From positions 18,555,589-18,619,588 of the forward strand of contig OY294048.1 in the NCBI GenBank assembly GCA_958510825.1: a stretch of 64,000 bases of DNA, in the 5' to 3' direction. Below are positions 33,701-36,700 of the stretch, in pieces. A model generated the notes under the pieces. The model ran no database searches. It was not told where the DNA came from and saw nothing but the letters and a program-made list of their open reading frames with translations. Made by a program: the position numbers and the translations under genes. Numbering within the stretch: the first letter of the stretch is position 1; each line of letters begins with the position of its first letter. The DNA comes from Brachypterus glaber. Lineage: Eukaryota; Arthropoda; Insecta; Coleoptera; Kateretidae.

Positions 33701-36700
33701 TGTTCCACAGTGAGGCGTATAGCCTGCGCAGTGACGGCGACTCAATTCTCTGGTGAACAGAAGTTGAGCCCCCACAACTGAGCTTGAGCTTTGGTACTAT
33801 TTTTTAATAACTTCTAAGCGCCCGCCCCTGCAAACTATAATGAATATTTTGACACCTGGAAGCAAAAAATATATATCAGGAACCGAGCAATCTCTATTTA
33901 AAAACCTGCCACTCCTTTTGAAAGACCCCTTAGTTATAACAAATATGAATGTATGTAAAACAAGTCTGAAGGACCTCTGTCGATGGCTTTTTGGGTAACC
34001 AATAATATGTAAGAGGGAGGGGCTATAATTGTCTTCTCTACAGTGGTAAATATATTATTTTTTTCACTACTAGCGCATTTATTATTATTATTTAACATTT
34101 TTATATCAATAATTATCATAATAAACTTAAATGTTTGCTGGATCTTAATAATATTATTTCATTTATAATTAATATAATTATTTCATTTATAATATTTGCC
34201 ATGCTCATTTATTATCCAATGGCAGAATATTGTAGCATTTTGTCCTTTAAAAATTATAAGTAATGACATCTCTTTGAAGTTCAAGGAAAATCAAGTGGCA
34301 CATATCAACTGTTTATAAAATATACTCCTACTAGGAGAGAAAAAAATATTAATGCTATTAAGAAGATTAATTTCACAGTCTAAAAACATGATAAATAATG
34401 GTATGTTCTAAAGCTAGTAGTGAAAAAAGAACTTTATTATTATTATTGGAGTGAACCGACTTCGTCAAAACTTTTCTTTTTCCTTGTATTACGCGATAAC
34501 TTTAAACAATCAGAAATAGTTCTCCTGATCATTTTAAGTTATCTAGATATATTACCATTAAAATTAGGTAAAATCTTTGCTGAATTTAAATGCTGTAGAC
34601 ATAAGCATTACAAAATGATGAGCAAAGAAAAACTAGTATTTTTTTTCTAAGATTTTCCAAATATTTGTTTTGATTTTAAGAATTTTTTCGATAATATATT
34701 AATTTGTTTGATATAACAAAAATACAACTTACTTTGGCGCAATGTCGGAGCCTTGCTGCATCAGCGAACCAATGGTGAACCACAGTGAATTTAATAAGGT
34801 AAACTGGTTCTCAAGCATGTCCGGATCATTGTTGCATGGATGCGGGTTGTCCCATTCATAAGGGCTGAACCTGCAACCATATAACAGTGGCTATAACTAA
34901 AATCTAATTTGGCTTACTTTGGAAGGAAATCGCAGCCCTGTTGCATCAGTGAACCAATGGCAAACCACATGCAGTTTGGCAGAGTGAACTGATTCTCTAA
35001 ATGGTCAGGGTTCGGGTTGCATGGGTGTGGATTCTGCCATTCGTACGGTGTAAATCTAGAAATTAAGGTTAATAAAATAAAGAAAAACTCATTTTAGAGC
35101 ATAAAATTTAGTAAGTAAAATTTTACTTTACATATTGTGTTCATATTGAAATTTGACAAAAGTGCGCGACTTTATCTTAGTTTTTTAAAATAGTATCTTT
35201 AATCATCAAAGATAATATTTCTCCTTTTCTAACATTTAATTTTTTGATGTATTATCGTATTCCATTTTTATTTTTATAATTTAGAAAAACAAAATTGATT
35301 GCCAATTTGTTTTTTCGGAAAAAAAATAGAATTTAACTCTATAAAATTTTTTGATGTATTATCGTATTCCATTTTTATTTTTATAATTTAGAAAAACAAA
35401 ATTAATTGCCAATTTGTTTTTTCGGAAAAAAAATAGAATTTAACTCTATAAAATCTCTAAAAATAGGAAAAACGACACTTATGAATATGAGTCCAATATC
35501 AACGCTGCAGCTTATTTAAGATATCTGGCATAGTATACCCTTAGTAAAAATATCGTATATTCTCAAAAAAATTTAAAAAAAAAACTGTTGAAACCGGCTG
35601 AAATAAAAAAAAACTTTTAAATGCGGTGTCACTTGATATGAAATATTATGGTCTAATTTTAGTTTAGGCCTTATTTTAATTATTAGTCAATTTTTGACAC
35701 TTTAAGGTAAAGTCGCGCCCGTTAAACGTGATTTATTTTTGATAAACATTTATGGGAGGTCTATTGGGTCCCTATGGATCCCGAAATCGTTCGAGTTTAA
35801 AAATGACTGGGACATCCCAATTATTTGGAAATCTATTTCACAATCTTTATTATTAGATAACTATAGTATATTCAACTTCAAACTGCAGTAAGTGTAAACA
35901 AACGCACGTGAAAACAACGGATTTAGTGACAGGGTAGGACTCAAAACAAAATATTTCTATATAAGGGTCTATTGCAATACATCGTACGCTTCATCGCAAG
36001 TACTCACGTACTGACCTGTTTAATTTTCTACATCCCTACTCTCGCAACATTCGAGTGTTTTAACCAATGAAACCACGCGCCAGCTGCCGCGTGTGCGATT
36101 CTTTTATTTACCTCTACTGAATCTTGAAGTTAAATATACTATAGATAAAAAATAGATAAGAAAAAGAAAAATAGATCTATAGTATGTAAAGTTTGTTTAC
36201 GTCCAACATATCTAGTGTGACATATAAAATTTCCATGACTGGCATACAACATAAATATTATTATTTGGAGTGGGAAAAGAATATATTATTTTTGTGAATA
36301 AAAGTTTTATTTTAAAACCACAGTGGCTTTAGAACAATAAAACAAGTAGAATAAACACTCAAATTTATTATTATCTATGAAAAATATGTAATAAAAAAAG
36401 CCAACAACATTCTGTTGTAACCCAGTTTAAAAATTTTAATAATTAAAATTTTACGACGTTACTTTATTGGTTAACTTCAACATATCTCAGCTAGAAATAA
36501 AATTTTAAAAATACATTTACAGTAAAACTAAATAAATAACGTCGTGTTACTTTCTCAACATCGTATCTCCAATAAAATAATATTCAGTTCTTTGCACTAA
36601 TCCATTTTGTACATGATGACATAATTAATACAACTCCAACTAATTATTCCAATTAGTTTAATACGCTCTATTTATTAATTGTTATTAATTAGAGTTTATA

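What the first reader, a model, noticed from the sequence alone, without database searches (positions are those of the whole stretch)
34733..35055. Duplicated pore-loop exon in a kainate-type receptor: likely mutually exclusive exons
Two 138-nt exons with the same phases and good splice sites each encode the whole M1-M2 linker and M2 pore loop (LMQQGCDFLPK against LMQQGSDIAPK). They share 35 of 47 residues. One gene could thus make two channels differing in pore and linker while keeping the same ligand-binding domain. The known exclusive exons of AMPA receptors (flip/flop) lie in S2, not in the pore; I do not know of a described pore-exon switch in insect kainate receptors, though I could not search for one.
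Basis: partly seen in the sequence, partly recalled or inferred. Interest (0 to 1): 0.88.

Follow-up and report, generated by a model that had tools for sequence, protein, structure and literature searches.

The report
Two swappable pores in one receptor
A kainate-type glutamate receptor gene in this insect carries two neighbouring versions of the exon that encodes the channel pore, both versions are found in other insects and in crustaceans, and the gene likely makes two channels with different pores by using one exon or the other.

Summary
Confirmed and extended. On the minus strand, 35055-34918 (exon A) and 34870-34733 (exon B) are homologous 138-nt exons. They share phase, have consensus splice sites and are separated by a 47-nt intron. 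They lie in a KaiR1D-type kainate receptor gene whose exons run from 49.7 to 3.7 kb; the N-terminal exons are outside the window. Each encodes the M1-M2 linker and pore loop, equivalent to GluK2 residues 584-629 including Q/R site 621.

The pair is ancient. The A-type exons in my lists, from insects, decapods, an isopod and a millipede, form one clade (54 of 132 rows, support 98/91). In six species, database protein models are identical outside this exon and differ only by A or B. Where one model holds both, A comes first in 34 of 34.

In the window both copies have Gln at the Q/R site. In 11 of 11 hymenopteran A exons (and one louse) it is a gene-encoded Arg, never in B (0 of 95). A Grik-like paralogue shows a second tandem pair, Arg copy then Gln copy, in 30 of 30 models. 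Splicing may do in arthropods what Q/R editing does in vertebrates.

Strict exclusivity is inferred: no RNA reads were available, and 34 of 195 relatives' models join both copies. Seven topical literature searches found no description.

The parts
34918..35055 (-). Pore exon A (138 nt, phase 2/2): FTPYEWQNPHPCNPNPDHLENQFTLPNCMWFAIGSLMQQGCDFLPK; Q/R-site codon CAA at 34943-34941
   Evidence: Read directly; Pfam Lig_chan; in the A-type clade, support 98/91
34733..34870 (-). Pore exon B (138 nt, phase 2/2): FSPYEWDNPHPCNNDPDMLENQFTLLNSLWFTIGSLMQQGSDIAPK; Q/R-site codon CAG at 34758-34756
   Evidence: Read directly; Pfam Lig_chan; the four nearest rows in the tree are B-type exons of beetles
34871..34917 (-). 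47-nt intron between A and B; no yTNAy branch-point consensus inside it
41360..41790 (-). Upstream shared exon: S1 of the ligand-binding domain and M1 (start approximate), ends CTTGCAAG|gttagt
   Evidence: Pfam Lig_chan-Glu_bd; tblastn with Tenebrio, Rhynchophorus and Exocentrus proteins
23882..24080 (-). Downstream shared exon: M3 and start of S2 (AVSTRMVAGMWWFF...)
22720..22951 (-). Shared exon: S2
17388..17504 (-). Shared exon before M4 (ends approximate)
3743..3904 (-). Shared exon with M4 (ends approximate)
44631..44849 (-). Shared exon at the end of the amino-terminal domain (ends approximate)
   Evidence: ANF_receptor, below the curated cut-off; tblastn
49535..49690 (-). Shared exon of the amino-terminal domain (ends approximate); earlier exons were not found in the window
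   Evidence: ANF_receptor; tblastn

Best explanation
This is the KaiR1D-type kainate receptor gene of an insect, probably a beetle, with a tandem duplication of the exon that encodes the M1-M2 linker and pore loop, and the two copies are likely spliced in as alternatives so that one gene would make two channels that share everything but the pore. Shown: the two exons, their equal length and phase, their splice sites, the 47-nt gap, the conservation of each type, and model pairs in six relatives that differ only in this exon. Inferred: that this species uses one copy per transcript. Inferred mechanism: the A donor and any branch point for B in the 47-nt intron lie below the roughly 50-nt donor-to-branch-point threshold described for vertebrate exclusive exons, so A-to-B joining would be disfavoured, while M1-to-A and M1-to-B joining compete for the same upstream donor. 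Inferred effect here: both pores keep Gln at the Q/R site and Asp at +4, so both are predicted to pass calcium and be blocked by polyamines. The difference would lie in Cys versus Ser at +3, in the filter exit (FLPK versus IAPK) and in the M2 helix, hence in conductance, block, gating or auxiliary-subunit contact.
For: Anatomy. Pore identity: Pfam Lig_chan; the best solved relatives are kainate receptors such as GluK2, and the exon aligns to GluK2 chain residues 584-629 with the Q/R site at 621, the number given for the GluK2 Q/R site in PMC3391646 (passage). Orthology: 99% identity over the M1-pore-M3 region of isoform A to proteins named kainate-type subunit 1D (Rhodnius) or kainate 2 (Cimex, Tenebrio). 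Alternative use: model pairs with 100% identity on both sides and 33-34 of 46 residues within the exon in Schistocerca americana, S. gregaria, Cloeon dipterum, Macrosteles, Euwallacea fornicatus and Cacopsylla melanoneura. Age: A clade of 54 of 132 rows, 98/91, holding all 53 distinct A-type segments sorted by motif plus this window's. Order A then B in 34 of 34 models holding both. Threshold of about 50 nt: passages of PMC7969005 and PMC5740500. Drosophila KaiR1D forms homotetramers (PMC11188076, passage), so a pore switch would change the whole channel.
Against: 34 of 195 pooled models contain A and B together, 33 of them joined exactly at the exon edges, including numbered isoforms of Anabrus, Bombus, Vespa, Helicoverpa and Cydia; some may be real transcripts. 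Both exons are multiples of three, so no frame check enforces exclusivity. Beetles do splice short introns (PMC6191289 passage: firefly luciferase introns under 100 bp), so 47 nt may not forbid A-to-B joining. No RNA data from this species. Of the 15 species compared, six other A/B candidates proved to be different genes.
Confidence: 0.8

Rival explanations
1. Alternative but not exclusive: A-only, B-only and A+B transcripts are all made, and the in-frame A+B form is a regulated non-productive channel or has its own role.
For: 34 of 195 models hold both in frame, several of them numbered isoforms; both exons are 138 nt in the window.
Against: A second re-entrant pore loop between M1 and M3 is hard to fit into the known iGluR pore (recalled, not tested). 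All three lists were scored over the pore region and appear to favour models that hold it twice, which rank first, so the 34 are probably over-represented. Six species have clean single-exon pairs.
Confidence: 0.13
2. One copy is a relic that is not used in this species.
For: The B acceptor has a weak pyrimidine tract (my reading of the sequence) and its short intron no yTNAy consensus; no RNA evidence from this species.
Against: Both copies are open, have consensus GT/AG sites, show third-position-biased differences (11/7/27) and are 45 of 46 (A) and 44 of 46 (B) identical to other insects.
Confidence: 0.04
3. Both copies are always included and the 47-nt intron is constitutively removed.
For: Joined models exist in beetles: Rhynchophorus, Exocentrus, Molorchus, Diabrotica balteata.
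Against: Rhynchophorus (P0109) and Euwallacea (P0055, P0110) have single-exon models, and a doubled pore loop is structurally implausible (inference).
Confidence: 0.03

Closest known systems
Flip/flop exons of vertebrate AMPA receptors GluA1-4 (named in PMC5740500, passage)
   Same: Tandem homologous exons used as alternatives in an ionotropic glutamate receptor gene, giving channels that differ in one short segment.
Q/R-site RNA editing of vertebrate GluK1 and GluK2 (PMC3391646, passage) and GluA2 (recalled)
   Same: Chooses between pore variants of the same channel at the same loop; bee and wasp exon A encodes the edited-like Arg.
   Different: Splicing of alternative exons instead of base editing; in this window both exons encode Gln.
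OGDH exons 4a/4b (PMC7969005, start of abstract and passages) and alpha-tropomyosin exclusive exons (reference title there)
   Same: Ancient tandem exon duplicates separated by a short intron in which donor and branch point lie too close to splice together.
   Different: There the branch points are mapped; here only the 47-nt length and the absence of a consensus are shown.
Grik-like arthropod kainate gene with a tandem M1-M2 segment (found here)
   Same: Tandem duplicated pore-coding segment between one S1 and one M3-S2.
   Different: The repeated segment is larger (M1 through M2) and switches Arg to Gln at the Q/R site in 30 of 30 models; seen only in protein models, so its exon edges are inferred.

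Membership tests
KaiR1D-type kainate receptor | Glutamate-binding S1 domain and Lig_chan pore domain | tested here: met
   Lig_chan-Glu_bd E 5e-46, Lig_chan E 1e-22 (M3 exon), 3e-8 (A), 5e-9 (B)
KaiR1D-type kainate receptor | Closest relatives are kainate rather than AMPA receptors | tested here: met
   Top solved structures are GluK2 and other kainate receptors, above GluA (isoform B piece); closest insect proteins are named kainate 2 or kainate subunit 1D (isoform A)
KaiR1D-type kainate receptor | Complete receptor, N-terminus to C-terminus | tested here: inconclusive
   Window covers from about residue 296 of Tenebrio onward; earlier exons were not found in it
Mutually exclusive exon pair | Homologous, tandem, equal length and phase | tested here: met
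Mutually exclusive exon pair | Each exon can be joined alone to the flanking exons | tested here: met
   In relatives' protein models only: six of 15 species compared have a pair differing only by A or B; not tested in this species
Mutually exclusive exon pair | The two exons are not included together | tested here: inconclusive
   34 of 195 models hold both; support of these models by reads unknown
Mutually exclusive exon pair | A mechanism that enforces exclusivity | tested here: inconclusive
   47-nt intron without yTNAy suggests steric interference; beetles can splice short introns
Flip/flop | Alternative exons lie in S2 between M3 and M4 | tested here: not met
   Exons lie between M1 and M3, aligned to GluK2 584-629
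Splice-encoded Q/R switch | One copy encodes Gln and the other Arg at the Q/R site | tested here: not met
   Window: Gln in both. In relatives: Arg in 12 of 95 A-type segments (11 of 11 Hymenoptera, and Menopon) and 0 of 95 B-type

The most novel reading that the evidence does not exclude
Arthropods control the pore of kainate receptors by splicing where vertebrates use RNA editing. KaiR1D and its relatives carry an ancient pair of exclusive pore exons, in which B keeps the calcium-permeable Gln pore and A is free to diversify (Gln in beetles, Arg in bees and wasps). A Grik-like paralogue carries a second pair that switches Arg to Gln outright.
Probability: 0.5. Interest if true: 0.88.

Novelty: new variant of a known kind. 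Interest (0 to 1): 0.74.

Why it matters
The pore loop sets calcium permeability and polyamine block of glutamate receptors. A conserved pair of pore exons would let an arthropod neuron retune those properties by splicing, without editing and without a second gene. In Hymenoptera the A exon carries the same Arg that vertebrates install by editing, which makes the Q/R choice testable by counting splice junctions. The flanking protein is unchanged, so the two isoforms form a clean natural experiment on what the M1-M2 linker and pore loop do. Drosophila KaiR1D is needed presynaptically for homeostatic potentiation at the neuromuscular junction (PMC9083331, passage), so a pore switch in this gene would bear on a well-studied synapse.

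Tried and rejected
Chance similarity of two reading frames: rejected by Pfam hits, splice sites and conservation. Recent local duplication or gene conversion: rejected, because exon A is 45 of 46 identical to Rhodnius A and only 34 of 46 to exon B, and the A clade excludes B types. A third copy or relic elsewhere in the window: none found. A Q/R switch in this window: rejected, both codons encode Gln (CAA and CAG). Flip/flop membership: rejected by position. Of 15 species compared with themselves (22 pairs in all, four of them across species), six gave identical flanks with A against B. Cryptotermes came close (263 of 263 upstream, 236 of 242 downstream). Vespa and Rhynchophorus compared a joined A+B model with a B model. 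Thrips, Hetaerina, Neocloeon, Ladona, Ephemera and Rhodnius pairs are different genes and are not counted. Position 44 (Leu in A, Ala in B) looks diagnostic, but the motif used to sort the rows includes it, so it is not used; the tree does not depend on that motif. The proportion of A, B and A+B models is not an estimate of usage: the three searches were scored over the pore region, joined models rank first, and only the best 120 of 7255, 7464 and 392 hits were listed. One of the 195 proteins gave no pore segment by the pattern used (P0038). Camelus (P0167) was left out of the tree. Intron-length statistics of this genome and orthologous DNA of other insects were not obtained: the genome search did not complete and the other collections are microbial or viral. 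Structure prediction was not run; I judged that it would not separate the readings.

Papers: none was read whole. Passages by term search only: PMC7969005 (also start of abstract), PMC5740500, PMC6191289, PMC13270666, PMC4737855 (RNAi lines of CG3822 and CG11155), PMC11188076, PMC9083331, PMC4382183, PMC3391646; PMC3228551 and PMC3923563 hold no occurrence of glutamate or kainate in the main text. The statement that no description was found rests on seven topical searches of one open-access library; three more (33, 39, 40) were on introns and splicing mechanism. One search listed 12 of 47 papers, and several listed papers were not opened. Subscription journals, supplements and FlyBase were not seen, and Drosophila melanogaster KaiR1D was not among the listed hits.

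Full report
Observation. The minus strand holds two tandem 138-nt exons: A at 35055-34918 and B at 34870-34733. Both have AG acceptors and gtaag donors. The upstream exon ends CTTGCAAG|gttagt at 41360 and the downstream exon starts TTTCAG|AGCCGTTTCG at 24080, so either copy reads ...LAR-F-x-PYEW...PK-AVSTR... in frame. The copies share 93 of 138 nt and 35 of 47 residues; differences by codon position are 11/7/27, dN is 0.20 and dS was not computable. The intron between them is 47 nt.

Gene. Pfam gives Lig_chan-Glu_bd and Lig_chan, and the closest solved structures are kainate receptors. tblastn with Tenebrio, Rhynchophorus and Exocentrus proteins recovers exons from 49.7 kb to 3.7 kb on the minus strand, from about residue 296 of Tenebrio to M4. 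Relatives with the same pore region are named kainate 2 or kainate-type subunit 1D. Over the shared upstream exons the twelve best of the 195 pooled proteins are beetles (Molorchus 94.8%, Tenebrio 94.4%), so the host is probably a beetle (inference). The exons align to GluK2 chain residues 584-629 and the Q/R site to 621, which is the number PMC3391646 gives for the GluK2 Q/R site (passage). Each exon thus covers the M1-M2 linker, the M2 helix and the filter.

Age of the pair. I pooled 195 proteins from three searches (best 120 listed of 7255, 7464 and 392). By pore type, 59 hold A only, 59 B only, 34 A+B, 27 the Grik-like Arg copy alone by this pattern, and 16 fall in other or unclassified patterns. 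A tree of 132 distinct pore segments puts the A types in one clade (54 rows, 98/91): the window's A and all 53 distinct A-type segments. They come from hexapods, decapods and other crustaceans (the isopod segment equals a crab one) and a millipede. The bootstrap had not fully settled and 46 columns are few for 132 rows. B types do not form a supported clade and sit with annelid, nemertean and fish outgroups. Owenia is 38 of 46 identical to the window's B and 32 of 46 to its A, so A is likely the derived copy and B keeps the ancestral pore (inference). B types include an ostracod and a barnacle, but I saw no crustacean with both an A and a clear B in this gene. The A clade also holds paralogues, such as a second Rhodnius gene with its own tandem pair, so the duplication may predate that gene split.

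Use of the pair. In six of 15 species compared, two models are identical on both sides of the exon and differ only in it: Schistocerca americana, S. gregaria, Cloeon dipterum, Macrosteles, Euwallacea fornicatus and Cacopsylla melanoneura (upstream 555-573 residues, downstream 251-307, exon 33-34 of 46). Six of the other species compared turned out to be different genes. Three unnamed-source proteins of 751-863 residues come from contigs of only 2.8-3.6 kb, so they are probably transcripts (inference); each has one pore exon (A, B, B). Against strict exclusivity, 34 models hold both, always A then B, 33 of 34 directly joined.

Mechanism. A 47-nt intron cannot place the branch point 50 nt from the A donor. 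Passages of PMC7969005 and PMC5740500 describe about 50 nt as a steric threshold for exclusive exons in vertebrates. No yTNAy branch-point consensus occurs in the intron; the nearest candidates lie inside exon A, 75 nt or more from the B acceptor. This supports steric exclusion but does not prove it, since beetles splice short introns (passage of PMC6191289).

Pore chemistry. In the window both copies have Gln at the Q/R site (CAA at 34943-34941 and CAG at 34758-34756) and Asp at +4. They differ at +3 (Cys or Ser), in FLPK versus IAPK and in the M2 helix. Elsewhere A varies more than B. Of 95 A-type segments 80 have Gln, 12 Arg, 2 Ala and 1 Gly at the Q/R site. Of 95 B-type segments 93 have Gln and 2 Cys, the two Cys in crustacean paralogues. 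The 12 Arg are 11 of 11 Hymenoptera and the louse Menopon; another louse, Polyplax, has the Gly. No sawfly A exon was in the lists. A Grik-like paralogue has a larger tandem M1-M2 segment, Arg copy first and Gln copy second, in 30 of 30 proteins that hold the Arg copy, one of them (Carabus) with an altered motif; the search favours such doubled models. The effect of Arg (lower calcium permeability and no rectification) is recalled from vertebrate AMPA receptors and was not tested here; the passage of PMC3391646 on GluK2 lists the Q/R site with other sites as affecting calcium permeability, in wording that leaves the direction for Q/R alone open.

Known or new. Exclusive exons in glutamate receptors are known from flip/flop (named in PMC5740500). 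A pore-exon switch in arthropod kainate receptors was not found in seven topical searches of an open-access library. Database models already carry both isoforms, so the sequence facts are public while the reading was not found described. I file it as a new variant of a known kind.

Verdict. The open steps are RNA evidence for exclusivity and recordings of the two pores.

Noticed in passing
Protein models P0014, P0050, P0052, P0053, P0058, P0059, P0061, P0069, P0077, P0083, P0088, P0090 and others: A Grik-like arthropod kainate gene has a tandem M1-M2 segment: an Arg copy (LRQGSG[LVI]NPK) followed by a Gln copy (MQQ[GE]S[DEN]L) in 30 of 30 proteins holding the Arg copy, including six beetles and eight Drosophila species. 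This is a likely splice-encoded Q/R switch.
   Followed up: partly
Exon A of Hymenoptera (P0008-P0011, P0013, P0029, P0060, P0065, P0066, P0070, P0183) and Menopon (P0185): Gene-encoded Arg at the Q/R site of the A exon, apparently gained independently in Hymenoptera and a chewing louse; B keeps Gln.
   Followed up: partly
Exon A of Lepidoptera, Trichoptera and leafhoppers (P0016, P0018, P0044, P0051, P0091, P0174-P0182): The filter glycine is replaced by serine (LMQQSCDFLPK instead of LMQQGCDFLPK) in these A exons.
   Followed up: no
window 6226-10359 (-): Long open LINE-like element (1103-aa endonuclease and reverse transcriptase ORF, preceded by a 273-aa ORF without a Pfam hit) in the receptor intron before the M4 exon, same strand.
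   Followed up: partly
window 11324-12599 and 15528-16882 (-): Further reverse-transcriptase ORFs in the same receptor intron; Pfam RVT_1 was found in the two that were scanned, 11324-12223 and 15528-16589.
   Followed up: no
window 60229-61570: Inverted repeat with 434-nt arms, 94% complementary, 474 nt apart, with 140-nt tandem units.
   Followed up: no
window 35238-35454: Near-perfect tandem duplication of 107 nt (99% matches) about 180 nt upstream of exon A in its intron.
   Followed up: no
window 11234-11331, 47943-48044, 51508-51608: Nearly the same 50-51-nt unit (GGGGCAGTGAGTCTATGCTCACTG...) occurs as two-copy tandem arrays at three distant places.
   Followed up: no
P0167 (Camelus GluA4, partial): The pore region occurs twice, identically, 380 residues apart; likely an annotation artefact.
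   Followed up: no
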